A DNA stretch of 26,160 bases from a virus. Under the pieces are notes generated by a model. It ran no database searches and was not told the origin of the DNA. It saw nothing but the letters and a program-made list of their open reading frames with translations. A program made the position numbers and the translations under genes. The DNA is taken from the IMG/VR virus record IMGVR_UViG_3300036841_000052, positions 1 through 26,160 of that record, one strand, 5' to 3'. Positions 1,596 to 25,108 of the stretch are shown here, piece by piece (within the stretch, counting starts at the first letter, position 1; each line of letters opens with the position of its first letter).

Positions 1596-2081
1596 ATGTC
1601 AAACATTCTTCGTGGCGTTCCACTCTACGAACGCCACGCCGCTAAGACTATCCGATGCGCGCCCGACGAATGCTGGCCCTGGAACGCCCACCGATCGAAA
1701 AAGAACTTCGGAATGATCGGGTGGAAGGGAAGCTCGATCGCAGCACATCGTGTGGCCTATGCCATCGCTCAAGGTTACGCAACCCCGGATGAAATACCCA
1801 GGGACATCGTTGTCGACCATATCTGTCATGGCCGAGATCAATCATGCAATGGAGGGAATAAGTGCGAGCACCGCGCCTGTCAAAATCCGGATCACCTCGA
1901 AGGAATAAGCACAGGAGAAAACACATTACGTGGTCGAAGTTTCGCCACAATCAACGCTGCCAAAACACATTGCCCCTATGGACACTCTCTCGATGATGCT
2001 TATCAAGTTCACCGCAACTCTCGCCAATGCCGCCCCTGCACATTGGAGCGAACACGTCTCCGACACATGCAGACCCGCTGA
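1596..2081 (+). CDS. HNH homing endonuclease
   Basis: A 161-aa protein on the strand opposite to its structural neighbours. Residues about 28-60 hold a WPW element and AHRVAYAIAQG, a DNA-contacting segment seen in HNH_3-type homing nucleases. Residues about 75-115 hold the ββα-metal core: VVDHICHG (the His pair), cysteine ligands in SCNGG, CEHRACQNPDHL and the closing N in GENTLRG. A C-terminal CPYGH...CRPC zinc-ribbon-like tail is typical of phage HNH proteins. It probably nicks or cuts phage DNA at the equivalent site lacking the gene and spreads by repair. It sits alone between tail chaperone and tape measure genes, is visibly poorer in G+C than its neighbours, and ends in a hairpin, all signs of a mobile insertion. 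An intron host is less likely because of the opposite orientation. Confidence 0.88.
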   Translation: MSNILRGVPLYERHAAKTIRCAPDECWPWNAHRSKKNFGMIGWKGSSIAAHRVAYAIAQGYATPDEIPRDIVVDHICHGRDQSCNGGNKCEHRACQNPDHLEGISTGENTLRGRSFATINAAKTHCPYGHSLDDAYQVHRNSRQCRPCTLERTRLRHMQTR

Positions 2082-5697: not shown

Positions 5698-6681
5698 TTA
5701 GCTGATCGTGTCGCCGGAGGCCGGGAACGTCTCGCCGGTGGTTACGCCGGTGATGACGCACGCGCACTTCGGCTGGTCGATGGCGATGGCCGAGGCCCGC
5801 GTCATATCGGTGCGGAAGCTCTCGGTCTTGCCGCCGTTGCCGCCGCCGCCCTCCGGATACATCGGCGTGGCACCGAGCGGGCGCTCATCGGAGATGGCCC
5901 CGACGACATTGCGTTGGAGCACGAGCGCGCCGTTGGGGATGTAGGCGTTGAGCCGCCACGAGGTGTAGACGTCCAGCCCCATGAAGGTTCGTTCGAGGAT
6001 GCCGGTGTAGGTCGGGCTCTTGACTGCGAGCGGGCTGTTGGCGTAGACCTTCGCGACCTCATCGGAGTCGAGGAAGTCCATCTCACCCTCGTCGGAGATG
6101 ACGAGGGTGTCGGCCTTGAACCCGAAGCGCTGCTGATTGCCCGGCGGGTCGAAGCTCGCGGTCTTGATGACGAACTTGGCCGCGTTCACGTCCTTGCGGA
6201 TGTGGCTGTCGGCGTCGCCCCACGGCGTGTCAGTGGCGAGGGTGTTGAGGTTCGGGTTGGCGATGAGCGCCGAGAAGAAGGCGTCCTCCCAGGCCCGGAC
6301 CATCGTGTTCGAGAGCTGGGTCATCTGCGTGGTGACCCACTCGGCCTTGTTGCGCCGGATCGCGGTGTAGCTGACCCGCAGCGCGTAAGCGCGGCGCACC
6401 GCACGCGCGACGCGCGGGCGCCCGACCTGACCGGCCACCGTCGGGATCTCGCCGAACTCGTCCATGATCGACGGGTTCTCATCGAGGAACAACGGCGTCG
6501 ACTCGAAGTAGCCCACGAGCCCGTTCTGCGTCGGGTCACCCTTACGCAGAATCGAGTCCACGAGGAACTGTTGGTTCGCCATGCTCAGGAGGCGCCGGGG
6601 GAGGAACGTGGTCGACTTCATCATGTCGGCCACGGTCATCGTGGTGCCGGTGTCCCGAGCGTTCACAAGCCGCTGCGGCAT
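5698..6681 (-). CDS. Major capsid protein
   Basis: A 327-aa protein following the protease-scaffold and decoration genes, the expected place for the HK97-fold capsid subunit. The N-terminal part (MTVADMMKSTTFLPRRLL...) is helical, the middle (VRAWEDAFFSALIANPNLN) resembles the long spine helix region, and the C-terminal part carries MYPEGGGGNGGKTESFRTDMTRASAIAIDQPKC, typical of capsid proteins that refer to the particular axial or peripheral domain strands. The length suits a medium T-number capsid. Whether the N-terminus is cleaved by the prohead protease cannot be seen. Confidence 0.85.
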   Translation of the reverse strand: MPQRLVNARDTGTTMTVADMMKSTTFLPRRLLSMANQQFLVDSILRKGDPTQNGLVGYFESTPLFLDENPSIMDEFGEIPTVAGQVGRPRVARAVRRAYALRVSYTAIRRNKAEWVTTQMTQLSNTMVRAWEDAFFSALIANPNLNTLATDTPWGDADSHIRKDVNAAKFVIKTASFDPPGNQQRFGFKADTLVISDEGEMDFLDSDEVAKVYANSPLAVKSPTYTGILERTFMGLDVYTSWRLNAYIPNGALVLQRNVVGAISDERPLGATPMYPEGGGGNGGKTESFRTDMTRASAIAIDQPKCACVITGVTTGETFPASGDTIS

Positions 6682-7232: not shown

Positions 7233-8504
7233 TTACTCGGCCGAGCGGCCGGTCAGGTGCGGGAAGCTGACCTCGAACTGCGCTTCAAGCTGCGCGTCGA
7301 TGTCGCCGCCGTCGATGTCGTCCTCGCCGGAGCCGTAGTGACCGATCTCGTGCCCGAGGTCGATGGTGCCCTCCAGCCGGGAGAGCAGAGTCTCCACGAT
7401 CTCAGCCACCTCCACCTCCTCACCGCCGAAGCTGGTGTTCGAGAGGTCGACCACCAGCGCGTCCGGGCGCGCGAGCACCGGCTCGCAGAGGTCAACGGCC
7501 TCCGGCGGAATGCCCTTGGCGATGAACGCCGCGCGCCGGGAAGCCCAATCGCGCTTGACGGTGCGGCGCATGACTTCGGTGGCCTGTTGCTCAGCGCGCT
7601 CAGCGCGAGAGTTGGCGAGGTCGATCTGGCGCTGTGCTACGCGGGACAACTTGGCCTCCGTGGTGGTATCGGTGTCGTCACCCTCGATGTCGTCACCTTC
7701 GTCGTCGGCGTCGGTGTCCTCGTCGTCGCCGCCTTCGTCATCATCCTGGTCGCCGTCGCCGTCCTCGCTGTCGGTGAGATGCGAGAACTTCTCCACGAAC
7801 TGCGCCAGTTCCTCGTCGGTCATCGCATCGAGGTCGGCATCGGTGACCCTGCCTTCGAGCACGTCATCATCGGTGAGCGTGGCGAGGTTGATGGTTGCCT
7901 GGCGCTTCTTACCCACGGCATCCTCCGGGAATTGGGCGTTGGACAGGTCGAGCAATTCACCGGAAGCATAGACGCTCAGGTCGGCGTCCTCGGTCCAATC
8001 CCCCAGGTTGGTCACTTTGGGATCGGAAGTGCCGAGCACATGGACGAGGCGCGGCCCTTCTTTACCTTCGCGGATGCGCGCCGAAACACCGAGGCGCTGT
8101 TCGGAGCGGAGCACGGCGGCGGCCGATTCCTCGTCCGGGAACCGGATCTTCGTCCAGAGCCCCGGCATCGGCTTACCGGCCTTCGAGGTGATCGATGCCT
8201 GCACCTTGGCCGGAAGGTCCTCCCAGCGCACCGCCCTGGTGACCGTGCCACGCTCGCGTTCGGGGTCCATCGTGTGCCGGTTGTCGGCGTCCGCGAGGGT
8301 GAACGGGATCCGCTCTGCGGTCTTGGCGAAGCTGGAGATCAGGCCGGGGATCATCCCGGCGAAGTCGATGCGCCGGGTCTTGCCGGTCTTGTCATCGCGG
8401 TAGTCGAACTGCGTCGCAGGCAAAACTCGCTTCCAAAACGACCGACCCCCACCAGAGGAAAGAGCTATGTCCTCCACGGGGGTCAAAATCGTGCGCGCCT
8501 TCAT
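7233..8504 (-). CDS. Prohead protease fused to scaffold
   Basis: A 423-aa protein. Residues about 1-200 resemble capsid-maturation serine proteases: a candidate catalytic His77 in DADNRHTMD, then a strand segment LWTKIRFPDEE and a candidate Ser141 in RLGVSARI, followed by the GPRLVHVLGTSDPKV motif (near 151-164) where relatives carry the substrate-facing strand. Residues about 243-282 form an extremely Asp-rich linker. Residues 290-330 are helical and charged (RAERAEQQATEVMRR), as in scaffolds. A fusion of protease and scaffold is common. The start codon is preceded by only a 10-base gap from the previous gene and no clear Shine-Dalgarno sequence. The active site is inferred from motif alignment by eye. 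Confidence 0.8.
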   Translation of the reverse strand: MKARTILTPVEDIALSSGGGRSFWKRVLPATQFDYRDDKTGKTRRIDFAGMIPGLISSFAKTAERIPFTLADADNRHTMDPERERGTVTRAVRWEDLPAKVQASITSKAGKPMPGLWTKIRFPDEESAAAVLRSEQRLGVSARIREGKEGPRLVHVLGTSDPKVTNLGDWTEDADLSVYASGELLDLSNAQFPEDAVGKKRQATINLATLTDDDVLEGRVTDADLDAMTDEELAQFVEKFSHLTDSEDGDGDQDDDEGGDDEDTDADDEGDDIEGDDTDTTTEAKLSRVAQRQIDLANSRAERAEQQATEVMRRTVKRDWASRRAAFIAKGIPPEAVDLCEPVLARPDALVVDLSNTSFGGEEVEVAEIVETLLSRLEGTIDLGHEIGHYGSGEDDIDGGDIDAQLEAQFEVSFPHLTGRSAE

Positions 8505-10207: not shown

Positions 10208-10453
10208 TCAGCATCCCAACCGGTCGCACAGCTTGTTGTAGAGCTGTTCGGAAAGCTCCCCGTCCATGACCGCAGACTCGACCTGTAGCCACGTCCGGTC
10301 CTCCATCTCACCGTCACCGAAGCTGCCGTGCTCTGTCCGGATGAATCCGGACGGGCTCATCGGCCGTCCTTTGAGCGTCTTGGCGAGCGCGTCAACGTTG
10401 CCGGTTCGCTGCGCTTGCGCCAGCTCAGCACTGATGTCTACTGTCTTGCTCAT
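10208..10453 (-). CDS. 81-aa protein, unknown function
   Basis: A small protein starting MSKTVDISAELAQAQRTGNVD, with a middle FIRTEHGSFGDGEMEDRTWLQVESAV segment and an end LYNKLCDRLGC. It lies between the zeta-kinase gene (30-base gap) and the 562-aa gene (4-base gap), so it is probably co-translated with both. A position directly downstream of a zeta-like toxin domain invites the idea of an antitoxin, but it does not resemble the three-helix epsilon antitoxin by eye and no DNA-binding motif is seen. The function is left open. Confidence 0.6.
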   Translation of the reverse strand: MSKTVDISAELAQAQRTGNVDALAKTLKGRPMSPSGFIRTEHGSFGDGEMEDRTWLQVESAVMDGELSEQLYNKLCDRLGC

Positions 10454-10483: not shown

Positions 10484-12748
10484 CTATCCGGATCTGCCGG
10501 GATGACGGCCGATCAACCGGCCTTCGTATGTGGTGCCCTGATGGTAGAGTTGGGAATCTGCGAAACGGTGTCGTACCGCATCGAAAGCTTCCCGGTTCTT
10601 ACTGGAAGCGCCTGTCGCGCTCTTTCCGGCTTCCACGAACGACGACGGTACGTAGCGCTGACCAGGGTGGCCTTCGTTGTGTTGCGCCGCGATCCAACCT
10701 CCCTTGTGCCGCGCGGCCACCGACTGCGCGCTGAAATCATGCGGAATGTCGAAAAACATCGCGGTGGAGTGGTAACCGTCCGCGTCGAGCGGGTCGAGCC
10801 GCTTGGTAGCGGACTTGACGCTGTTCATGGTCATATCGTGGATGATGTTGTAGCCGTGCTTGCGCGCGTGGTCAGCAAGCATCTCAGCCATCATCGCGGA
10901 TTCCTCGTGGTGGAACGCGCTTGCCTCCAGCGGCGACAAACCGGGATGAGAATCGATCAAGCCCATGTGGGCCATTCGTTCCTTGAATATGTCCGGGTTG
11001 ACGGTGATGTATTGGTTCTCTACGTCCCCGAGCACGTTCTGGAGCCCGCGTGACTTCCCGGCACCGGGAAGTCCTCCCAGAAAGATCGCTTTCTTGTCTT
11101 TCCGAGCGCCCTGTCGTACTTGCTTACGGAATTCAGTCGCCACCAGCTTCTTGAACATCGCGCGGCGCTCACGGGTCCACTTGATCGAATCGGTGTCCTT
11201 GTCGTAGGTGCCGTACTTCGGGTTGACCCCGCCGTTGTCGGTGTGCGCATGTGCGAGCAGGTAGTCGTCCACGTACTTGCGGTGGGCTTCGTACTCGGCA
11301 TCACGCTTGGCGATGGCGCGAGCCTTTTCCGGGGAAGGCGTCTCACCCTTCTCCACCTTGAGCGGATCCTCGTTCTTGCGGGTGTAATGGCCCTTCCAGT
11401 TTCGAACGGGCTTCTTCTTTTTCGCTCCGGGGGTCGGGAATGTCCCAGCCTTGTGGTGGCCGCCTCCGGCCCCCATCCGTTCCTTGATCGTTACGGCTTC
11501 CGGGTTGAGCGGGATCCAGCCGTGACGCCAGTGCGCGCCGTTCTCACCGAGAATGAGGTCCTCGCTGGGCACTTCGATGGCGAATTGGCCCGCGAGCCCA
11601 CCGGTGAAAAGGTTCGGCAGACGGCCCTTGCCGATGTCGTAGTCACGCTCGGTGCGCGGGCGCTTCTCGGTCCGGTTCGGTTTGCCGGTGCGCATCTTCT
11701 GCGATCCGATGATCCGGTTCGCGATCTCGCGCTGGCGTGCGTATTCGGCCCGTGCGCGGCGGCGCTTCTTGCGGCCCTTCACGTCGGCCGCTCGTGGCTT
11801 CGAGCGGGTTTCTTCCCTTGGCGTCGCGACAACCGGCCGGTGCTTAGACCTGTCCGCAGCTTTCCGGGCTATCCGCTGGGCCTGACGACGGGCCAATTCT
11901 GCCTGTGCTGGCTTCCATTCGTACTCAAGGTCAGATTCCCGGACAATCGACTGCAACAAAGCATCCGGCATCCGAGCATAGTGAGCCGGATTGGATGCCA
12001 TCGAACCGGGGACGTCTGGTGCGTAACCGCCCTCTACGGTCGAGACCCCGCCGTATTCATTGTGATCCGGGACTTTGTACCGACCGCTCAAGAGCCCTTT
12101 CGGATCCGGTTCGTCCCGGTGCGGCACCTCGAAACCGTTGCCGAGCTTGCCATCGTCGTTGATCTTGATCCAGCCGTGCCGGTAGCGAAACGTACGGCCG
12201 ATGGCGAGGTCGACATCACCACCAGCGGCCTCGATCGCGGTGCCGATGTCGGGGTAGCGCCGCCTGACGGCCGCCACGATCCGGGCCTGCTCAGCCGGGC
12301 TCGCGTGGCCGCGCATCCGCAGCGCCGCGATGGCGTGAGCACGGTCATTGATCGGGTAGGCGCGCTTTTCCGGCAAGGCGAACTGTGATTTCTTGAGCTT
12401 CTTCCGTGCCTTGGCCTTGAGCTTGGCGAGGTCGACCACCGAGCCGACGGGCTCCGCGAAAGCCTTGCGCTGCGCGATGGAGGCGGCGGCCCCGGCAGCG
12501 ACGGCCGGGTTGCGGACGTGGCCCCGGCCCCACTTGCCGCGTATCGCGGCGTTGCGGATGATCCCGCGCGCCATCATGATCGCGCGGCGGCGCTCGGTGC
12601 CCTTGCGCATAAGCGCGTGCGCGACCTCCCGCTCGTAGTCGGAGAGCTTACGTTTGCCGTGGTAACCGGGCCGGGCCAGCGGGCTTGCGTCACCAGGACG
12701 GCCACCGGGTGTGACGGCGAGATCGAGGTCAGCGTTGATGACGGCCAT
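10484..12748 (-). CDS. 754-aa putative virion protein with C-terminal zeta-toxin-like kinase and two RHGW motifs
   Basis: The N-terminus (residues 30-100) has LSDYEREVAHALMRKG and GKWGRGHVRNPAVAAG, then YPINDRAHAIAALRM and HASPAEQARIVAAVRRRYP (131-166), a DUF6582-like pattern common in phage head genes. RHGW motifs occur at residues 190-193 and 408-411. Residues about 280-370 are very basic. From about 550 a P-loop kinase domain begins: FLGGLPGAGKS (556-566, K565), a candidate catalytic or substrate Asp586 in VNPDIFKERM, then HHEES and NIIHDMTM, the order seen in zeta toxins and related polynucleotide or sugar-nucleotide kinases. Zeta toxins phosphorylate UDP-N-acetylglucosamine. The gene lies in the head module, so the product may enter the virion or the cell. 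No epsilon-like antitoxin is recognised. Confidence 0.8.
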   Translation of the reverse strand: MAVINADLDLAVTPGGRPGDASPLARPGYHGKRKLSDYEREVAHALMRKGTERRRAIMMARGIIRNAAIRGKWGRGHVRNPAVAAGAAASIAQRKAFAEPVGSVVDLAKLKAKARKKLKKSQFALPEKRAYPINDRAHAIAALRMRGHASPAEQARIVAAVRRRYPDIGTAIEAAGGDVDLAIGRTFRYRHGWIKINDDGKLGNGFEVPHRDEPDPKGLLSGRYKVPDHNEYGGVSTVEGGYAPDVPGSMASNPAHYARMPDALLQSIVRESDLEYEWKPAQAELARRQAQRIARKAADRSKHRPVVATPREETRSKPRAADVKGRKKRRRARAEYARQREIANRIIGSQKMRTGKPNRTEKRPRTERDYDIGKGRLPNLFTGGLAGQFAIEVPSEDLILGENGAHWRHGWIPLNPEAVTIKERMGAGGGHHKAGTFPTPGAKKKKPVRNWKGHYTRKNEDPLKVEKGETPSPEKARAIAKRDAEYEAHRKYVDDYLLAHAHTDNGGVNPKYGTYDKDTDSIKWTRERRAMFKKLVATEFRKQVRQGARKDKKAIFLGGLPGAGKSRGLQNVLGDVENQYITVNPDIFKERMAHMGLIDSHPGLSPLEASAFHHEESAMMAEMLADHARKHGYNIIHDMTMNSVKSATKRLDPLDADGYHSTAMFFDIPHDFSAQSVAARHKGGWIAAQHNEGHPGQRYVPSSFVEAGKSATGASSKNREAFDAVRHRFADSQLYHQGTTYEGRLIGRHPGRSG

Positions 12749-13059: not shown

Positions 13060-14667
13060 TCAGATGATAAGCCGCGCGGCGTAGGTTCGGCTCGATGCGT
13101 CGGCGGGCACGCTCGCAACGTAAATTCGGCCCGGAACGCTCACGGTCACCGAGTACACGTGTGCCGGGGGTAAGAGCGCCTCCACGTTCCAGCTTGTCGC
13201 GCGGGTGGCGAGCACCCCTTGCACGACCTCCCATGTTGTCGAGCGCGTCTGGCTGACGCTGGCCCGGGCTGCCCACGTCGTCGCCCTGGTGGTGGTTACC
13301 GCCTGGCGCACCGTCCAGCTTGTCGTTGCGCTGGCGCCGATGCTGGCTTCGGTGGCCCAGCTCGTGTCGCGGGTGGCGGTTACCGCCTGGCGCACCGTCC
13401 ACGTCGTGCTGCGGCTCGCATCGACTTCGAGGACCGAGCCCGCTACGTCCCAGCTCGTCGCTCGGGTGGCGGTTACCGTCTGCCGCACCGTCCACGTCGT
13501 ACTGCGCGCTTGGCTGACGCTGGCCTCGGTGGTCCATGTAGTGCTGCGGCTCGCGTCAACCTCGGTGATCGCCCCGGCTACGTCCCAGCTTGTGTCGCGG
13601 GTGGCGCTGACGCTCGCCTCGGTAGCCCAACTCGTATCGCGTGCTTGGCTGACGGTTGCCTCGGTGGCCCAGCTCGTATCGCGGGTGGCGCTGACGGTTG
13701 CCTCGGTGGCCCAGCTCGTATCGCGGGTGGCGCTGACGGTTGCCTCGGTGGCCCAGCTCGTATCGCGGGTAGCCGTAATCGCTTGGCGTGCCGTCCACGT
13801 TGTTGCCCTGCTCTGGCTGACGCTGGCTCGCGCTACCCACGTAGTAGCGCGCGCTTGGCTGACACCGGCTCGCGCGACCCACGTCGTTGCCCTGCTCTGA
13901 GTGACGCTGGCCCGTGCTACCCATGTTGTTACTCGCGATTGGCTGATGCTGGCCCGCGCTACCCACGTCGTTGCTCGCGTAGCGGTCACCGAAGCAAGAC
14001 CAAGCGGGTCAGCCTGGGTCCCGACCGGCGTGTTCATGCACGTCGTGATCTGAGCTGCGGTCAACGCACCGTGGTAGATCCGGACATCATCGACTGAGCC
14101 ATCGATAACGCCGTCACTAAAGTCGTTAGAAGATGCGACCTGGAAGTTCGCGGACGGGAACGTCAGCGTCCCACCGTTCCATGTGGTCTGTACCGCTTGC
14201 ACACCATTCTTGTAGAGAGTCAATTTCTGCGCGGTGGCGTCATAGGTCAATGCCCAATGGATCCACGTACCAGTAGAGAAGGTCACGCCTGTTGCTTGCG
14301 ACGTACCCACGTCGGGCACGAGCGCGTACATATCCCCGCCGATGACCCACAACGCGAAGTTGTTTACCCATCCACCTGTGTTGCCGGAGGCCAAAAGCGG
14401 TTTCTCAGCACTGGTGGCGATGTTCGCCCAGCACATGATGGTGAAAACGTCACCGACGCTTGAATTCAGCCACGAAGTCGCGCTGCCCGTGCCGTAGGAC
14501 ACCGCACCGGGACTGGCCCCGTTGCCGACGGCGGCTTTTCCGGTGCCGCCGTGTCCGGTGCCGTAGCTGATGTCACCGCCAGTGCTGTCGGTGAGGGTAT
14601 GACCGTTACCGGAAGCGTCCGTTCCGTTGCTCGCATCGAAGCTATAGGCGGCGAGCAGGGTCGCCAT
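13060..14667 (-). CDS. LamG-domain fibre-like protein with 14-residue repeats
   Basis: A 535-aa protein. Residues 1-220 form a LamG/concanavalin A-like jelly roll: MATLLAAYSFDAS with the GxxG-rich strands, FTIMCWANIAT, WIHWALTYDATAQKLTLYKNGVQ and GSVDDVRIYHGALTAAQI are diagnostic. Residues about 228-493 are around nineteen tandem 14-residue units of the type ATRDTSWATEATVS, each with an invariant Trp and an R-x-T/S-T/S-W core; two units are 17 residues. The last 40 residues are beta-rich and end in a stop that precedes the next gene by 2 bases. LamG domains bind carbohydrate or peptide ligands, so the protein may be a surface fibre or head appendage that contacts host or environmental polymers; this role is inferred. 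Confidence 0.82.
   Translation of the reverse strand: MATLLAAYSFDASNGTDASGNGHTLTDSTGGDISYGTGHGGTGKAAVGNGASPGAVSYGTGSATSWLNSSVGDVFTIMCWANIATSAEKPLLASGNTGGWVNNFALWVIGGDMYALVPDVGTSQATGVTFSTGTWIHWALTYDATAQKLTLYKNGVQAVQTTWNGGTLTFPSANFQVASSNDFSDGVIDGSVDDVRIYHGALTAAQITTCMNTPVGTQADPLGLASVTATRATTWVARASISQSRVTTWVARASVTQSRATTWVARAGVSQARATTWVARASVSQSRATTWTARQAITATRDTSWATEATVSATRDTSWATEATVSATRDTSWATEATVSQARDTSWATEASVSATRDTSWDVAGAITEVDASRSTTWTTEASVSQARSTTWTVRQTVTATRATSWDVAGSVLEVDASRSTTWTVRQAVTATRDTSWATEASIGASATTSWTVRQAVTTTRATTWAARASVSQTRSTTWEVVQGVLATRATSWNVEALLPPAHVYSVTVSVPGRIYVASVPADASSRTYAARLII
13191..13990 (-). repeat. Array of about nineteen 42-bp coding repeats
   Basis: The LamG gene's repeat region has a 42-base period (two units of 51 bases). 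Three adjacent copies near 13640-13770 are essentially identical, while others differ at many bases. The identical copies point to recent unequal exchange or slippage. Confidence 0.85.
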
Positions 14668-15240: not shown

Positions 15241-15966
15241 TTAGCCGACCGAGCGCAGCTTCGGCCGGGTACCGACCTTTCGGGCTTCGAGCCGGACGAT
15301 GCCGAGCAGCTTGTCGTTGACCATCTCACCGTCCGGGTGTGGCGGCCCAGCCACACACGCGCAGTGCGGGTGCACCGATCCGGGCAGGCCGATGATCGTC
15401 GCTTCGTCGGCGTAGAAGTTCGCGCCGTCCGCGATACGGCACTCGGCCTCGCTGTTGCTCTCGGGGTCGCGGTACCACCCGAGCAACGGCCCCCAGCGCT
15501 GTGCGGCCTTGGCGGTGCGCCCTGCGGCGTCCAAGCGCTTGCGCCGTGCGGCGAGGTGGCGGGTCAGGTTCGGCGTTTCGGCCGCCGCCGCGTCGGCCTG
15601 CGGTTTCCCGGCGTCGAGCGCGGCCTGCACGCGGCTCGCGGCGGCCATGACGTAAGCGGCGCGGCTGTAGGGTTCCACGGCCGCTGCACGGCGCGCCACC
15701 TCAGCCCCGGCGCCGCTGGCGCTCACCCCGAAGGCGGATAGCTGCGGCCGGGCGCGCAGCGGCGCGGCCTTGGCGTCGATCAGGCGCAGCACGAGCGCGA
15801 CGGCGGCGGCGCTGACGTGCCAGGGTGCGAGTAGGACTGAAATCTCGGCCGCCGTCGCAGCGGCCCCGGCACCGGTGAGCAGGACAGCTGCGACGAGGTT
15901 GCTCATCTCGTCCTGCTCGGCCGGTACCGGGTGGGCCTCCACGACGCCGATGCCGGGCTCGCTCAC
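15241..15966 (-). CDS. MuF-type head morphogenesis protein
   Basis: A 241-aa protein. The start chosen is GTG 15966, overlapping the upstream TGA (GTGA); a longer ATG frame to 16044 would overlap the 74-aa gene by about 80 bases. After an Ala-rich helical N-terminus (residues 20-150), the C-terminal part has WGPLLGWYRDPESNSEAEC, then ADGANFYADEA and GLPGSVHPHCAC, which is the diagnostic MuF (SPP1 gp7-like) motif with the paired Cys/His. MuF proteins bind the portal and enter the prohead. Genes of this family usually follow the portal; here eight small genes separate them. Confidence 0.85.
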   Translation of the reverse strand: MSEPGIGVVEAHPVPAEQDEMSNLVAAVLLTGAGAAATAAEISVLLAPWHVSAAAVALVLRLIDAKAAPLRARPQLSAFGVSASGAGAEVARRAAAVEPYSRAAYVMAAASRVQAALDAGKPQADAAAAETPNLTRHLAARRKRLDAAGRTAKAAQRWGPLLGWYRDPESNSEAECRIADGANFYADEATIIGLPGSVHPHCACVAGPPHPDGEMVNDKLLGIVRLEARKVGTRPKLRSVG

Positions 15967-16187
15967 CGCCCGGCCCCGCAACTGCACAGGCAGGCGCCGA
16001 AGTGGAACGGCGGGAGTACGCACCGGTGGTCGCCACCGGACCACTGCTCAGCGCACTCGGCCCGGAAGCGGTGCATGCTCTCATCCGCTGGTGACGCGGC
16101 AACCTCTACTTGCCAAGGCTGATCAGTCCACCCGATCGGTTGCCAACCTGCGGCCTCTGGATCCCACTCACCGCTCACACGGCCCAT
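15963..16187 (-). CDS. 74-aa Cys/His-rich protein, unknown function
   Basis: MGRVSGEWDPEAAGWQPIGWTD... continues with HRFRAECAEQW and ends DHRCVLPPFHFGACLCSCGAGR, a set of Cys and His residues that could bind zinc. Its ATG overlaps the upstream stop by one base (TAATG) and its stop overlaps the next GTG (GTGA), so it is translated as part of a coupled run. No family is recognised. Confidence 0.65.
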   Translation of the reverse strand: MGRVSGEWDPEAAGWQPIGWTDQPWQVEVAASPADESMHRFRAECAEQWSGGDHRCVLPPFHFGACLCSCGAGR

Positions 16188-18969: not shown

Positions 18970-20478
18970 CTATGCCAGGGGTTTCGGTTTCGCCCCGGCC
19001 GCCTTGATCGCCTTCTCGGCCGCGCCTGCCGCGCCGTTGAGCCCGGCGAGGTTCTGCCGGTGCGCGGTCATCGTCACGCCGAACTGCTCTTGCTGCATCT
19101 TGTCCTGCTGGGCCTGGCGCGCCTTGGCCTCGTCGGCCGCGCGTTGGAAGTCCGCTGCGGTCTTGTCCTCGTCCAGCCCGATGAAGCTTGCCACCCGCGC
19201 CGCGAGCGCCCCGATGAACTCGGCCGGGATCGCCACCGTGGGGCTCACGGAAAGGCTGGTGAGCAACTGGAAGGCACGGTCCTTGTCCTCGGCGGTCAGC
19301 GGCTCGAACACCAGCTTGGGTACTTTGGCGTTCGGCCCGAAGTTGTAGCGGGTCACCGGTGCGAAAAGGTCGCGCCGGATCCCGGTCGCCAGTTCCGAGA
19401 GCCGTCCCTCCTCGCTCTGGAGGTAGAAATCGGATGCGTCCTGGCTCAGCGCTAGGCTCCCGTGGCCTTCGCTGGCCTGGCTGGCGAGATCGATGAAACC
19501 GGCGAGCACCGCGTTGGCCGGTTCGGAATCCAGCCACTTGATCGTGGCGAGGAACTGGTCCGCCCCTTTACCGGAAACGTCGAGGGGTTGCACCACGATG
19601 CCCTGTGGTCCGGAATTCGTGTAGATCGGCGCTACGCCGCCGCCGCGCGTGTTGGCGAGGGTCTTGGCCGCTGATTTCGTTTCGGTCTCGTCCTGCCCGA
19701 TCACGGCGATGCGCGGCAACGACAGACTTTCGAGGTACTGGAACCACAGCAACAAGATGCGTTGCTTGGTCTTGTAGGCCCAATAAGCCACCTCCAGCTC
19801 GGAGGTGCCGTTGATCGGGTCGGTGCGCTTGCCGTTGATGTAGACGAACGCGCGCGGTGCCTTGCCGGGCTTGTTGAGGATCTTGTACGGGAAGATCCCC
19901 TTGCGGATGTCGTCCCCGAGGTAGTACGGGTCCTGCTCGAACCCGACGATCGCACCGTTGGCCGGGTCCCGCATCGGTCGGCACGTGGTCTGGGAGCGCC
20001 ACGCCACTTTGGAGTAGACCACCTGGCCCGCCGTGTCCCCGGCACCGTGGCCCCAGACCAGCTCGAAGAAGGCTTTCTTGTAGCTGATCGCGCTAGTGGC
20101 CTGGTCGATAACCTGTTGCAGCGGCGTCGAGCACGCCCCGGCCGCGAGGTCGTCGCCGGAGAACATCGCGGTCAAGGAATCAGCCTCCCCTTTGTCACCG
20201 GCCAGCCCATCGATCTTCCACTCGGCCGCCATGATCGGCTGGGTCAGCACCGTCTCGATCTGGCGCGATCGCGCGGAGCGCTTGAGCATCTCCGAGAGGT
20301 CGCGCGCCTCCCAATCGTCGTAGGAGATCAGGTTCTTGGTGTTGATGTCGAAGCCGTAGTTCCACCGGTCGAAAAACCCGAATTCGGTGCCGATCTCCTC
20401 ACCGAATGGCGGGTCGGATAGCGCTTTGCGGCTCACCAGTCGTAGGTTCGGGGAGTTGGCCGGGGTCGGTGCGGTCAT
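18970..20478 (-). CDS. Portal protein (DUF935, Mu gp29-like)
   Basis: A 502-aa protein following the terminase and protease-like genes. The N-terminal half has FGFFDRWNYGFDINTKNLISYDDWEARDLSEMLKRSARSRQIETVLTQPIMAAEW (here split: SYDDWEARDLSEML; LTQPIMAAEWKIDGLAGDKG) and FEQDPYYLGDD, the pattern of the DUF935 portal family used by Mu and many siphoviruses. Further blocks are YWAYKTKQRILLLWFQYLES (clip/wing region) and DLASQASEGHGSLALSQDAS. It forms the dodecameric ring for DNA entry and tail joining. It starts 13 bases after a very stable hairpin and has no evident Shine-Dalgarno sequence. Confidence 0.85.
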   Translation of the reverse strand: MTAPTPANSPNLRLVSRKALSDPPFGEEIGTEFGFFDRWNYGFDINTKNLISYDDWEARDLSEMLKRSARSRQIETVLTQPIMAAEWKIDGLAGDKGEADSLTAMFSGDDLAAGACSTPLQQVIDQATSAISYKKAFFELVWGHGAGDTAGQVVYSKVAWRSQTTCRPMRDPANGAIVGFEQDPYYLGDDIRKGIFPYKILNKPGKAPRAFVYINGKRTDPINGTSELEVAYWAYKTKQRILLLWFQYLESLSLPRIAVIGQDETETKSAAKTLANTRGGGVAPIYTNSGPQGIVVQPLDVSGKGADQFLATIKWLDSEPANAVLAGFIDLASQASEGHGSLALSQDASDFYLQSEEGRLSELATGIRRDLFAPVTRYNFGPNAKVPKLVFEPLTAEDKDRAFQLLTSLSVSPTVAIPAEFIGALAARVASFIGLDEDKTAADFQRAADEAKARQAQQDKMQQEQFGVTMTAHRQNLAGLNGAAGAAEKAIKAAGAKPKPLA

Positions 20479-20571: not shown

Positions 20572-22386
20572 CTAGTCGCTGGGAAGGTCGGTCTCAGTGG
20601 TCAACCCGCTGGCGGGGTCCAGCCCCTTGATCTTGAAGTATTCGGTGAAGTGGTGGTTGAGCCAATCGGTCAGGTTGAGGTGCGACCGAGCAACTGCCTT
20701 AGCAATGTGAGAAGCCACCTCAGCACTCGCACCGGGAAAGGGCGCATCGGGCGGTTGCGGCGTCGGTTGCGGCGTCGGTTGCGGCGTCGGTTGCGGCGTC
20801 GGTTGCGGCGTCGGTTGCGGCTCAGGGACGGGGAGCTTACGGCCGGTCAGCGCTTCGTACTCGGCCGCGAGCTGCGTGATGCTCACGCCTTCGATGAACG
20901 CCTTCGAGGCGAAATGCTCAGGCCAGATGACGACCCACGCCTCCTCCACTTGGTGTGTACGGAAGCTCTCGTCCCAGCGCGTCTCGGCCGCCCACGTGAC
21001 GAAGCGCCAATCGGCCGGGCTCGTGTCGTCGCCCACCCCGGTAATGGAATGCCCGCCGTCGTCGGCGCTGCCCTTGGTGTAGGTCCACTCCCGGCCGCCG
21101 TTGAATTGGCTCATGTTCTGCGCCTGCACGTTGACCCCGTACCAGACCTGGCCGAAAACCGCGTGCGCGGCGCGGAGGTCGGCCGCGTCGGTGTGGTCCA
21201 CCTTCGCGAACGCAACCGCCTTGGTCCCGTCAGGGCCACCGGTCTTGGCGAGGTACTCCAGGCACGTCTGGATCTCCATGCCGTCGTCGCCTGCTCCGGT
21301 ATCCGGGTCGAAATCCGGGTTCTGGGTCCGGTAGAGCGCGTAGACCGCATCAAGGTCCGGGTAGTCCTCGGTACCGGTCAGCACCTTGGTCACCAGCGCG
21401 CGTTGGTTGGCCCACGTCACGGCCACGCAGTTATGGCTCGTCAGTCCCTCGGCAAAGTATGTCCGGCTGGTCGTGTCCAGCATCACGACTTCGCGTTCAC
21501 CGATGAAAGTCTTACGCACCAGCCTTGCCACATTGCTGCGCTGTAGGCGTCCCAATTTGTCGATGTCGAGCTTCGGCAACAATCGAAGTGGACGTACCGA
21601 TCCCATCAAGCGCAGGAAATCAGCACGCTTACCAACTGTGAGCCGATGAACATCTTGTCGTGCCTCGTATCTGGTGCTCCGCAGATCCACCATATGGCGG
21701 TACTCGATCCGGAGCGCTTTGAGGCATCGCTCGACTTCTTCCAGCATTTGGTTCTGCACCTGCGAGAACACGATCCGTTGGCTGGTACCGGTTTGATCGA
21801 GGTTGCCCTCACCGTCCAGCGCAGCGGCGACGTACCCCGCAGCGTAGGTTTCGTCGGTATCCCAAACATCAAGGGGTTTGCCGACGGAAGAAGCGTTGTA
21901 TCCCCCGGCTTTGAGGTTACGGGTTTCAGCCCATTTGGCTCCGTTAGCCATTGAGCCGATCAACCAGCGGTGCCCAGCGGAAGCGCGCACGACGGTTCCG
22001 TCATCGAATTCCAACTCATAGCATGGACGCATCACTCGATCTACACACTCCACCACCGAAGTGGTGTAGTAACGGCCCTTGGACTTTGCACCGCCGATCT
22101 CACTTTCAACCGGGTTTTCGGTGAAAGCGATCAACTTGTCCCCGACTGCCAGATCACCGGCCGGTACCCATCGCAACTCAGCCGTCAACACCCGCGTTTC
22201 CGGGGTCACGCAGTCACCGTGGTAGTCGTTGCCGAGCATCTGCCAGGCGATACCGGATGCCGCGCCGTAGTCGACCGAATCCGGGATGGTGATCTGCCCG
22301 GCCTCGTCGGTGCGCAAGATCGCCTTGAACGGCAGCGCCGGTGCGTTTTTCGGCGGCCTGCGTCCGAAGGCCAGCGGTGGGCTCAT
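20572..22386 (-). CDS. Papain-fold cysteine protease-like protein interrupted by an intein
   Basis: A 604-aa precursor; removal of residues 59-319 gives a 343-aa protein. The spliced host has WQMLGNDYHGDC-VAVTWAN, a papain-like active-site helix with the Cys at precursor residue 320 (mature 59), then ADDGGHSITGVGDD with a candidate His, and VTWAAETRWDESF with the third block. This block order recurs in a widespread actinobacteriophage family whose enzymatic activity is not firmly known. A Pro-Gln-Thr tandem linker (PQPT units) separates the globular domain from an acidic C-terminal region (LTDWLNHHFTEYFKIKG). The gene overlaps its upstream neighbour (ATGA). A virion or host-cell-wall related role is possible but unproven. 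Confidence 0.8.
   Translation of the reverse strand: MSPPLAFGRRPPKNAPALPFKAILRTDEAGQITIPDSVDYGAASGIAWQMLGNDYHGDCVTPETRVLTAELRWVPAGDLAVGDKLIAFTENPVESEIGGAKSKGRYYTTSVVECVDRVMRPCYELEFDDGTVVRASAGHRWLIGSMANGAKWAETRNLKAGGYNASSVGKPLDVWDTDETYAAGYVAAALDGEGNLDQTGTSQRIVFSQVQNQMLEEVERCLKALRIEYRHMVDLRSTRYEARQDVHRLTVGKRADFLRLMGSVRPLRLLPKLDIDKLGRLQRSNVARLVRKTFIGEREVVMLDTTSRTYFAEGLTSHNCVAVTWANQRALVTKVLTGTEDYPDLDAVYALYRTQNPDFDPDTGAGDDGMEIQTCLEYLAKTGGPDGTKAVAFAKVDHTDAADLRAAHAVFGQVWYGVNVQAQNMSQFNGGREWTYTKGSADDGGHSITGVGDDTSPADWRFVTWAAETRWDESFRTHQVEEAWVVIWPEHFASKAFIEGVSITQLAAEYEALTGRKLPVPEPQPTPQPTPQPTPQPTPQPTPQPPDAPFPGASAEVASHIAKAVARSHLNLTDWLNHHFTEYFKIKGLDPASGLTTETDLPSD
20753..20823 (-). repeat. 12-bp tandem repeat encoding a PQPT linker
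   Basis: Five full copies of a 12-base unit (plus strand GGTTGCGGCGTC) and a partial sixth encode the Pro-Gln-Pro-Thr linker of the protease-like protein. Frame-neutral copy changes are expected. Confidence 0.95.
21430..22212 (-). mobile_element. LAGLIDADG intein inserted at a predicted catalytic Cys
   Basis: 261 residues from Cys1 (precursor 59) to Asn (precursor 319). Block A is CVTPETRVL, block B includes the GTVVRASAGHRW region (with the His but Ala/Ser where Thr is usual), block F/G is REVVMLDTTSRTYFAEGLTSHN followed by +1 Cys. A LAGLIDADG-type motif GYVAAALDGEGNL lies at precursor 184-196, and the domain ends with a LMGSVRPLRLLPKL segment. Only one such motif is seen, so the endonuclease may act as a dimer or be degenerate. 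The Cys +1 is also the likely protease nucleophile. Confidence 0.93.
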
Positions 22387-22989: not shown

Positions 22990-24936
22990 TCAAGTCTGCC
23001 ACGCTTGCGCGTCGGTGGGCAGGTAAACCGTCGATCTTGCCTGCTCGGTTTCTTCCATTCTACCGTTCCAGCGCGGTTTCCGGAAGCCATCGTCGCTGGG
23101 CGCCTTCACCATTTCCAAAAGGTCGTCAAGCTCATCTTGCGCGTTGCGCGTGTTCGCCGCGACCACCGTGGCTGGGTGCGCGGTCGTTGTTTCGATGTCG
23201 GCCGCCGTCATCGGCGCGTAACCGGACGGGTAGGTGGCCCCGGTTGCGGTGTTAGGTGGGTTCCGGCGCCGCGTCATATCATCGACCATGGCCGCTTCTG
23301 GGTCCGCGAACACCCGGCCGGAAGGCCGGAACGCTTGGATCACCGCGTCTGCCGAGTCGGTGCTGCGTCCGAGGCGCTTCTTTATCTCGTCCTTGCTCTC
23401 GATCTGGATCGTGCCGTTGGCGAGGTGTTTCCATTTCGGTGCGCAAAGCTCCTCCTCCAGCCGTTCGTCCGGTGGCAGCATCAGCTTGTGCGGGTGCCGT
23501 GCGCTCGGGTCCAGAAGCTCGCGTAGGTGCCACCATGCAGCGGCCCGGTCGTTGAAGAATTTATAGCTTCCGCTCGTTGCGTCGCGTCGCCAAGTCGCTG
23601 CGCTCGCGGTGAATCCGATAACGGCGCCTTCGATCTGGCCCCTCTTACGGTAGCGGCGCAGAAGGTCGAACACCCCCGCGCCGATCCCGATCGTGTCGAC
23701 CACGGCCAAACAGTGCGGTTCCTGCAAATGCGCCGCTGCGGCGTCGGTCGTTTCCGTGGTGTCAGCCAATCGGAAGCGCTCCAGCGGTGCGATGTAGTCG
23801 CCGTAACGAATCGCGAACACCGTCTCGTCCTCGCCGCCGCGCGCCACGTCGACGCCGACCACCTTGCACGTCGGGTTCGGCACGGCTGCGGTGAGCTGCG
23901 GCGTCGGTGCGGTGCCGTAGCGGTCGGTGAAGCGCCGCCAGCGGTCGAAGGCGAAGTGCACCCACCCGAGCGGGATCACTCCGTCGGAGGTCGAAGGCGG
24001 GAACACCCCACGCACCTTGGCGGTGAACAAAGAGCTGGCCGCCGCACGGCGCGCGACCAAGCTCGGCCGCGCTTCTGGTGGTGTGTTCGCGAACTCGGTT
24101 TCGCTCACCCCGGCCCAACGTGCGATGCGCTCCTCGATCCACAGCGGGCTGAGCAGGTAGGGCCGGATCTGTTCGGGGATCTCCTCCGTGCTGTAGTCGA
24201 TGCCCTCGGCTGCCATCAGCGCGGCCGTCATCGGGTAGCGCGGCGCGTCGGAGTCCGGGCCGACGATCTCGGCCTCAGTCATGTTCGGGCTCTCCAGCCC
24301 GTCGAGCGCGATCACGTTCCACCCGGCGTTGGCTGCGGTGCCGGGCCTGCACACGGCCGCGAAGTGGCTACCGGGGTTGTCCGGGTTGCCGATCGCGAGC
24401 ACGCGGCTGTACTCGTTGGTAACGAGGCTGTCCACGGCGTCGAAGAGGTGTTTGCTTACGCCGCACGCCTCATCGATCACCACGAGCACGTACTTGGCGT
24501 GGATGCCCTGAAAGGCCGAATCCTCGTAGTCAGCGGGCTTTCGGCCGTAACCCACCAGCTCGGCGCCGATGTACCACTGCGGGTAACCGGCGCGGTTGAT
24601 CTTGCCCATGAGGCCGCCGAGGCGGTGGCTCTTGGCGACCTCACGCCACAGGATCGCTGACACCTGCGCAGCTGACGGCGCGGTGGACACCACGAACGCC
24701 TCGCCTACCGGGTGTACGTCGATCCACCACGCCATGATCTCGGCGGCGATCTTGCTCTTTCCGAGGTCGTGCGCGCTCCGGACGGCGGTGTAGCGGTTGT
24801 CTATGACGCTTTGCTGGATCTGCGCCTGTTTGGACCATGCGATCGTGCCGGTTTTGTCGCGGCTCCAGTCGGTAGCGCGGCTGACATAGCTGTTGGCCGG
24901 GTCGTAGCGTGCAGCGAGGTCGGCCCAGATGGTCAT
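22990..24936 (-). CDS. Terminase large subunit
   Basis: The start chosen is ATG 24936 (MTIWADLAARYDP), 7 bases after the upstream stop with GAGGAA before it; the frame continues to 24990 but overlaps that gene. The 648-aa protein has a Walker A variant SAHDLGKS (residues 54-61), Walker B VLVVIDEA (150-157) with Asp155 and Glu156, and an RNase H-like nuclease: Asp363 in VVGVDVARGGED, Asp414 in AVVDTIGIGAG, and Asp527/530 in RSTDSADAV. These are the ATPase and DNA-cutting sites of the packaging motor. The enzyme pumps DNA through the portal and cuts it. The gene follows the small subunit and two tiny ORFs. Confidence 0.95.
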   Translation of the reverse strand: MTIWADLAARYDPANSYVSRATDWSRDKTGTIAWSKQAQIQQSVIDNRYTAVRSAHDLGKSKIAAEIMAWWIDVHPVGEAFVVSTAPSAAQVSAILWREVAKSHRLGGLMGKINRAGYPQWYIGAELVGYGRKPADYEDSAFQGIHAKYVLVVIDEACGVSKHLFDAVDSLVTNEYSRVLAIGNPDNPGSHFAAVCRPGTAANAGWNVIALDGLESPNMTEAEIVGPDSDAPRYPMTAALMAAEGIDYSTEEIPEQIRPYLLSPLWIEERIARWAGVSETEFANTPPEARPSLVARRAAASSLFTAKVRGVFPPSTSDGVIPLGWVHFAFDRWRRFTDRYGTAPTPQLTAAVPNPTCKVVGVDVARGGEDETVFAIRYGDYIAPLERFRLADTTETTDAAAAHLQEPHCLAVVDTIGIGAGVFDLLRRYRKRGQIEGAVIGFTASAATWRRDATSGSYKFFNDRAAAWWHLRELLDPSARHPHKLMLPPDERLEEELCAPKWKHLANGTIQIESKDEIKKRLGRSTDSADAVIQAFRPSGRVFADPEAAMVDDMTRRRNPPNTATGATYPSGYAPMTAADIETTTAHPATVVAANTRNAQDELDDLLEMVKAPSDDGFRKPRWNGRMEETEQARSTVYLPTDAQAWQT

Positions 24937-24943
24937 GGATTCC

Positions 24944-25108
24944 TCACGGTGGCAGCCCTTTGGCGCGGCGCAGCGCTTGGCGTGCTTCACTGTAGGCGGC
25001 GTTGACTTCGCTCACGCAGTGCAGGCACCACGGGCATTGCGGGTGTGCGCAGTGCGGCAAGGCGGCTACTTCGCCGCATCTGCGGCATTTATTCGCTGTG
25101 CTCTCCAT
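24944..25108 (-). CDS. 54-aa zinc-ribbon-like miniprotein
   Basis: The start chosen is ATG 25108, preceded by AGGAGG at good spacing; a longer frame to 25156 is possible. The product MESTANKCRRCGEVAALPHC continues with AHPQCPWCLHC: seven Cys/His ligands in CxxC, CxxC-like arrangement, then a charged helix. Such small zinc ribbons are common in actinophage packaging modules. The reading frame overlaps the preceding membrane miniprotein by 20 bases, so they may be translated together. No specific function is known. Confidence 0.7.
   Translation of the reverse strand: MESTANKCRRCGEVAALPHCAHPQCPWCLHCVSEVNAAYSEARQALRRAKGLPP

What the first reader, a model, noticed from the sequence alone, without database searches (positions are those of the whole stretch)
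10484..12748. Zeta-toxin-like kinase as a C-terminal domain of a head-module protein
The P-loop kinase (GLPGAGKS at 559-566, Asp586) has zeta-toxin order and sits at the end of a large basic protein with phage head signatures. A packaged kinase that acts on UDP-GlcNAc or another nucleotide sugar after injection would be a new kind of injected effector or a superinfection/abortive device. An obvious epsilon antitoxin is missing.
Basis: partly seen in the sequence, partly recalled or inferred. Interest (0 to 1): 0.8.

Follow-up and report, generated by a model that had tools for sequence, protein, structure and literature searches.

The report
Zeta-like kinase on phage head cargo
A phage head gene carries, at its C-terminal end, an intact-looking kinase of the zeta-toxin fold; [quoted passage not shown]

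Summary
Window 10484-12748 (-) encodes 754 aa ending in a Zeta_toxin domain (Pfam 1.7e-22). The AlphaFold model (pLDDT 90) matches zeta and PezT best, then the NAD kinase AvrRxo1. Lysine, catalytic Asp586 and two lid arginines are kept. 'UDP-GlcNAc kinase' is not shown: invariant residues do not settle substrate, and haloarchaeal virus relatives, whose hosts lack murein, have lost the sugar-phosphate-contacting threonine that this copy keeps. The gene lies between MuF-like and scaffold/protease genes. A ~75-aa N-terminal helical domain ('chassis', no Pfam/PHROG hit) recurs in 21 of 22 dereplicated portal-related viral contigs, always before the scaffold gene where one is seen, joined to ADP-ribosyltransferase, 2H phosphoesterase, this kinase, or no enzyme recognised. 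A motif [VILMF][DE]L[ASTG] is enriched in these cargo proteins (55 seen, 10 expected) and in scaffold/protease proteins (60 vs 6.9) but not in terminase, portal, MuF or capsid proteins. I read it as prohead-protease or docking sites, which is inference. Injected zeta-like kinases on phage MuF proteins were proposed in 2017 (PMC5512222). So: a new variant of a known kind. The 81-aa neighbour is not epsilon-like by any search run; packaging and toxicity are untested.

The parts
10484..12748 (-). 754-aa protein: chassis domain, phrog_16160-like segment, two RHGWI motifs, C-terminal zeta-like kinase
12449..12748 (-). aa 1-100, N-terminal 'chassis' helical domain (helices at aa 37-98, pLDDT about 90)
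12266..12430 (-). aa 107-161, phrog_16160-like segment (9.2e-12)
12149..12196 (-). aa 185-200, first RHGWI motif
11489..11554 (-). aa 399-420, second RHGWI motif; matches the next large ORF (E 2e-10 over aa 390-474)
12716..12727 (-). aa 8-11 LDLA, first [VILMF][DE]L[ASTG] site
12425..12436 (-). aa 105-108 VDLA, second site
12203..12214 (-). aa 179-182 VDLA, third site, directly before the first RHGWI motif
10487..11191 (-). aa 520-754, zeta-toxin-fold kinase domain
11051..11074 (-). aa 559-566 Walker A GLPGAGKS (Lys565)
10991..10993 (-). Asp586, equivalent of zeta Asp67 (catalytic base)
10829..10831 (-). Thr640, equivalent of zeta Thr118 (contacts UNAG phosphate)
10709..10711 (-). Arg680, lid arginine present in all aligned relatives that cover it
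10655..10657 (-). Arg698, second lid arginine
10208..10453 (-). 81-aa ORF, with a purine-rich stretch before its start; weak syntenic counterpart after the kinase in L019
8515..10203 (-). about 562-aa ORF (likely ATG start at 10203) with one RHGWV motif, no family found
7233..8504 (-). scaffold/protease-like protein, homologous to the genes before the capsid gene in related phages; four [VILMF][DE]L[ASTG] sites
5698..6681 (-). major capsid protein (phrog_1650, 1.4e-67)
15241..16044 (-). MuF-like minor head protein (matches MuF genes of L019 and Bogota)
18970..20478 (-). portal (Portal_Mu, 5.3e-29)
22990..24990 (-). terminase large subunit (phrog_2, 2.9e-27)

Best explanation
The gene encodes a head cargo protein. 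Shown: it sits between the MuF-like and scaffold/protease genes; it begins with a helical domain that is a near-constant feature of this position in related phages; and it ends in a zeta-toxin-fold kinase with all tested catalytic residues. Inferred: the N-terminal part binds the scaffold, portal or inner shell and so brings the protein into the prohead; the prohead protease, or some other recognition step, acts at the [VI][DE]L[AS] sites it shares with the scaffold, separating carrier pieces from the enzyme; the kinase leaves the head with the DNA and phosphorylates a small nucleotide-containing metabolite in the new host cell. In this actinobacterial branch a nucleotide-sugar precursor of the wall is the first candidate, because Thr640 (zeta Thr118) is kept; NAD or another nucleotide is the alternative. 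Likely benefit: it weakens or stalls the host, or disarms a nucleotide-based defence, at the start of infection. No antitoxin is strictly needed, because a head gene is expressed late in a cell that will lyse.
For: Kinase fold and residues. Head position in the window. Same family inside head modules elsewhere: L019 (47% identical kinase in alignment A2; TerL-portal-MuF-kinase order), L027 (MuF and kinase in one ORF), L028, L029, L041, Phrappuccino and HVTV-1/HCTV-5. Carrier plus variable enzyme: Streptomyces phage Bogota gp9, next to MuF, has the same N-terminal domain (1e-7) and two HGWI motifs but an ADP-ribosyltransferase end; 21 of 22 dereplicated portal-related contigs with at least 4.5 kb after the portal have the chassis ORF, with ART or LigT/2H ends or none recognised. 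L050 has a related chassis followed by an HGWV motif, without a kinase. Motif shared with the scaffold/protease. Precedent for packaged, protease-processed, ejected head proteins: PMC10052503, PMC5512222.
Against: No virion proteomics exists for this phage or, in the papers I could read, for its relatives. The motif was first seen by eye in cargo proteins; scaffold proteins are homologous to each other, so their 60 sites are not independent. No protease domain was recognised by Pfam in the scaffold-like protein. Sites lie in the N-terminal third of the kinase protein, none directly before the kinase domain. Substrate is unknown.
Confidence: 0.6

Rival explanations
1. The kinase works in the producing cell, late in infection: made with the head proteins, it blocks wall precursor synthesis and helps lysis, and its presence in the head module reflects only co-expression.
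For: Zeta and PezT kinases cause lysis by acting on UNAG; the gene is in the late operon.
Against: The enzyme is joined to a carrier domain that is kept when the enzyme is changed or absent; haloarchaeal virus relatives have the same location although their hosts lack murein (host wall from general knowledge).
Confidence: 0.15
2. Same packaged effector, but the substrate is not a wall precursor: it phosphorylates NAD, a cyclic nucleotide signal or RNA ends and counters a host defence. (A branch of the best explanation rather than an exclusive rival.)
For: AvrRxo1, which makes 3'-NADP (PMC5923241), is the next structural neighbour after zeta/PezT, then polynucleotide kinases. Catalytic residues are kept in all relatives but the UNAG-contact Thr is not. 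The same slot holds NAD-using ADP-ribosyltransferases and 2H phosphoesterases.
Against: This copy keeps Thr640 and scores best with UNAG kinases.
Confidence: 0.25
3. Toxin-antitoxin or toxin-immunity pair: the 81-aa ORF protects the lysogen or producer from the kinase, as small ORFs are thought to do behind MuF toxins.
For: 81-aa ORF directly downstream; a 31% identical start of an ORF follows the kinase in L019; most MuF toxin genes are followed by small ORFs (PMC5576092).
Against: No Pfam or PHROG family; similarity to the L019 ORF is weak (E 0.03); Bogota gp10 after the ART gene is also small and did not match it, so small ORFs at this place need not be kinase-specific.
Confidence: 0.15
4. 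A minor head protein with a decayed or merely structural P-loop domain and no effector role.
For: The gene is in the head module and the enzyme part is dispensable in relatives (L050).
Against: Lys565, Asp586, His614, Asn634, Arg680 and Arg698 are unchanged across 25 kinases sharing about 18-47% identity with this one.
Confidence: 0.06

Closest known systems
Polyvalent proteins with zeta-toxin-like kinases (Iyer et al. 2017, PMC5512222)
   Same: Multidomain phage proteins near head genes, predicted to be packaged and injected; zeta-like kinases fused to MuF are named there, with a wall-weakening role.
   Different: Here the kinase is not on MuF but on a separate protein after MuF, with a chassis domain; I found no mention of such a carrier in the passages read.
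MuF polymorphic toxins (Jamet et al. 2017, PMC5576092)
   Same: Constant head-linked N-terminus, variable toxic C-terminus, small ORF downstream.
   Different: The constant part is not MuF; the word zeta does not occur in that paper.
Epsilon/zeta and PezAT toxin-antitoxin kinases
   Same: Fold, Walker A, catalytic Asp, UNAG-contact Thr, lid arginines.
   Different: 16-18% identity in the aligned structures, no epsilon found, fused to a 500-aa head-linked part, invariant His614.
Haloarchaeal virus HVTV-1 gp115 and HCTV-5 gp114 'zeta toxin'
   Same: Same kinase family, between the MuF gene and the protease/capsid genes, joined to other enzymes.
   Different: Kinase is N-terminal; UNAG-contact Thr is replaced by Val; hosts without murein.
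T4 Alt and SPN3US ejection proteins
   Same: Enzymes or proteins loaded into the head and ejected with DNA, many cut by the prohead protease at a short motif.
   Different: Different carrier, different motif; here neither loading nor cutting is shown.

Membership tests
Zeta toxin kinase family (PF06414) | Significant match to the family profile | tested here: met
   80.3 bits vs cut-off 22.3
Zeta toxin kinase family (PF06414) | Zeta fold with Walker A Lys, catalytic Asp and two lid Arg | tested here: met
   AF2 pLDDT 90; top PDB hits 3q8x, 1gvn, 2p5t, E down to 8e-10, TM 0.61-0.66; residues; the lid-Arg equivalence rests on alignment and memory of zeta Arg158/Arg171
Zeta/PezT UNAG kinase toxin | Thr118 contact to UNAG phosphate | tested here: met
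   Thr640 aligns to Thr118; role of Thr118 from PMC3062530
Zeta/PezT UNAG kinase toxin | Phosphorylates UNAG and is toxic | not testable with these tools
   Needs enzyme assay and expression
Epsilon/zeta toxin-antitoxin system | Adjacent epsilon antitoxin | tested here: inconclusive
   Only an 81-aa ORF with no Pfam or PHROG match; its fold was not predicted
MuF polymorphic toxin | MuF domain in the same protein | tested here: not met
   No Phage_Mu_F hit in the protein; MuF-like gene is separate at 15241-16044
Polyvalent protein (Iyer et al. 2017) | Effector domain(s) on a protein encoded among head and packaging genes | tested here: met
Polyvalent protein (Iyer et al. 2017) | Two or more enzymatic domains in one polypeptide | tested here: not met
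   One enzyme domain recognised in this copy; relatives such as L060 and HVTV-1 gp115 have several
Polyvalent protein (Iyer et al. 2017) | Injected with the DNA | not testable with these tools
   Needs virion proteomics and an ejection assay

The most novel reading that the evidence does not exclude
A previously undescribed cargo-loading system of actinobacterial phages: a conserved chassis domain after MuF, joined to interchangeable enzymes through short linkers (RHGWI, GGQF, RDxxGRW) preceded by [VI][DE]L[AS] sites that are also strung along the scaffold, so that one prohead protease frees the scaffold and releases each enzyme inside the head.
Probability: 0.35. Interest if true: 0.75.

Novelty: new variant of a known kind. 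Interest (0 to 1): 0.5.

Why it matters
If right, it names the carrier by which a group of actinobacterial phages may bring enzymes into the cell with their DNA, and gives a short motif by which cargo and its release can be predicted in other phages. It also makes a concrete question testable: what zeta-like kinases in phage heads phosphorylate, given that archaeal viruses without a murein target carry them too.

Tried and rejected
Full-length protein against viral contigs found nothing, and its N-terminus against annotated phages found nothing, so relatives were reached through the kinase alignment, Bogota gp9 and the portal. TerL and protease family searches across the kinase loci placed only some of them. 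A shared cargo/protease motif was sought in HVTV-1 and not found. The 81-aa ORF was compared with all small ORFs in fetched loci: one weak hit. Foldseek against viral models shows many zeta domains in 500-1500-aa phage proteins, so the architecture itself is not new. The AF2 model of aa 1-240 (pLDDT 69) was not searched for folds: only its helical part is reliable. No promoter-like site was found and terminator-like sites did not exceed shuffles. Papers searched for virion detection of a zeta kinase gave none. DUF6582 as a name for aa 107-161 is from memory; Pfam did not return it.

Full report
Observation. Window 10484-12748 on the minus strand is a 754-aa ORF. Its C-terminal part matches Pfam Zeta_toxin at 1.7e-22 (aa 547-712) and AAA_33 at 3.6e-8. 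By sequence the nearest solved structures are PezT 2p5t and zeta 1gvn, both weak. GLPGAGKS is at aa 559-566 and Asp586 aligns to zeta Asp67. Codon-position GC supports this frame over its antisense.

Setting. The window is a 26,160-base viral fragment. The minus-strand order is terminase (22990-24990), an intein-bearing 604-aa protein, portal (18970-20478), small genes, MuF-like (15241-16044), a phrog_13135 gene, a LamG protein, a short gene, the kinase gene, an 81-aa ORF, a ~562-aa ORF, a scaffold/protease-like gene (7233-8504), a decoration-like gene, and the capsid gene (5698-6681). MuF-like and scaffold assignments rest on homology to the same genes in L019 and in Streptomyces phage Bogota; the only direct family hint for the MuF-like gene is very weak.

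Kinase. From annotated phages, tblastn found relatives only in Mycobacterium phages Phrappuccino and Settecandela and in haloarchaeal viruses. A three-sequence alignment (A1) then brought 24 viral loci. In the 25-row alignment (A2), Lys565, Asp586, Lys589, His614 and Asn634 are invariant, and Arg680 and Arg698 are present in every row that covers them. The AlphaFold2 model has pLDDT 90.4, pTM 0.89. Against the PDB the best matches are zeta (3q8x, 1gvn), PezT (2p5t), then AvrRxo1 (4z8q and related), then polynucleotide kinases at lower confidence. Zeta phosphorylates UNAG with Asp67 as base and Thr118 at the UNAG phosphate (PMC3062530); AvrRxo1 phosphorylates NAD (cited in PMC5923241). This copy keeps the threonine (Thr640). 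The four haloarchaeal-type rows (L033, L035, L036, L040) have valine there, and haloarchaea lack murein (general knowledge). So the family as a whole cannot depend on murein synthesis as target, and the substrate here is open.

Kinase genes in head modules. Of the 24 loci, 11 have a portal, MuF, capsid, terminase or S78 protease gene close to the kinase in the fetched stretch (L019, L023, L025, L027, L028, L029, L033, L035, L036, L040, L041). In L027 a MuF domain and the kinase are in one ORF with a DNA-ligase domain; in L041 the kinase ORF starts 9 bases after the portal. The rest are farther from such genes or could not be typed. The search started from head-module proteins, so this is not an unbiased rate.

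Carrier. Bogota gp9, annotated ADP-ribosyltransferase and lying directly after MuF, shares the window protein's first domain (44% over 39 aa, 1e-7) and has two HGWI motifs, but ends in an ADP-ribosyltransferase (phrog_3895, 7.6e-17). A profile of that first domain (five sequences, window included), run on 55 portal-related viral loci, finds it again and again in an ORF following MuF. After removing near-duplicates, 21 of 22 loci with at least 4.5 kb after the portal have it. Where both genes are seen it follows MuF, and where a scaffold gene is seen it precedes it; in one locus (L047) no MuF gene was recognised. The enzyme part varies: Pfam ADP-ribosyltransferase in L018 on the same protein, and in L073, L080 and L088 on the next ORF; LigT/2H in L018, with weak 2H-type matches in L052 and L059; kinase in L019 and in the ORF after the chassis gene in L060 and L082, where L060 also has a PI3/4-kinase-like match and DUF7178. 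L050 has the chassis and an HGWV motif, like the window protein, but no kinase. L048 ends in a sequence that looks like an ADP-ribosyltransferase by eye, but Pfam finds none. Predicted structure of aa 1-240 is a confident helical bundle at aa 37-98 and further helices to about aa 174, low confidence elsewhere.

Motif. Reading these proteins I noticed [VI][DE]L[AS] in front of modules and linkers; in L060 several modules are preceded by such a site followed by an RDxxGRW or HGW linker. Counted over dereplicated sets as [VILMF][DE]L[ASTG]: cargo 55 seen, 10 expected by shuffling; scaffold/protease 60 vs 6.9; terminase 6 vs 8.5; portal 15 vs 11; MuF 2 vs 3.4; capsid 1 vs 2.2; head-tail 1 vs 2.6; four tail proteins of the MTP group 5 vs 0.5. 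The pattern was framed on cargo proteins, so the scaffold result is the confirmatory one, but scaffolds are homologous and their sites are not independent. A scan over residues picks the same choices in both sets (I or V before D/E, then L, then S, A or T), and the reversed pattern is only mildly enriched. In the window alone the kinase protein has 3 (0.28 expected, P 0.0015) and the scaffold 4 (0.53 expected, P 0.001); terminase, capsid, MuF, LamG, the 604-aa and the 562-aa proteins have none and the portal has 1. The MTP excess means the motif is not exclusive to cargo and scaffold. Prohead proteases of other phages cut many head proteins at short motifs (SPN3US gp245 after AxE, PMC10052503), so cleavage sites are a natural reading; docking sites are another.

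Antitoxin. The 81-aa ORF has no family. After the kinase in L019 the contig end holds the start of an ORF 31% identical to it (E 0.03; shared MDGEL). Small ORFs after MuF toxins are usual (PMC5576092). An immunity role is possible, not shown.

Literature. Iyer et al. 2017 state that zeta-toxin-like kinases occur in polyvalent proteins and fused to MuF in phages and may weaken the wall during injection (PMC5512222). Haloarchaeal virus zeta genes were noted with unknown role (PMC4284463). I found no report of a zeta kinase detected in virions.

Verdict. Real, and of a known kind in idea; the carrier domain and the motif shared with the scaffold are what I did not find described, with limited literature coverage. 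Packaging, processing, injection, substrate and toxicity are all inference.

Noticed in passing
window 20572-22386 (-): 604-aa protein between terminase and portal contains a Hint/LAGLIDADG intein (LAGLIDADG_3 0.0008, intein-containing family 3e-11); the flanks read ...NDYHGD and CVAVTWANQ..., a cysteine-peptidase-like sequence by eye (phrog_19005, 1e-10).
   Followed up: partly
window 13060-14667 (-): LamG-domain protein with 42-base tandem repeats (13584-13979) encoding a TTW/TSW-rich repeat.
   Followed up: partly
window 1596-2081 (+): 161-aa ORF on the opposite strand with an HNH-endonuclease-like sequence by eye, inside the tail region.
   Followed up: no
L060:14271-19526: 1751-aa phage protein with PI3/4-kinase-like, DUF7178 and zeta-like domains and four RDxxGRW-type linkers plus one HGW linker.
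   Followed up: partly
L027:6282-9998: 1238-aa protein joining MuF, a weak GNAT match, zeta-like kinase and ATP-dependent DNA ligase domains.
   Followed up: no
L045:10782-12815: Slot protein after MuF in a close relative, with an HGYI motif and a C-terminal HELGH zinc-peptidase signature, no Pfam family above cut-off.
   Followed up: no
L004:11557-15498 and L005:8542-12423: Haloarchaeal virus zeta proteins carry a repeated SDPTEQAPNRWT-type linker between modules (two copies in HVTV-1 gp115); HCTV-5's separate ART gene 109 shares the linker and the ART end of HVTV-1 gp115.
   Followed up: partly
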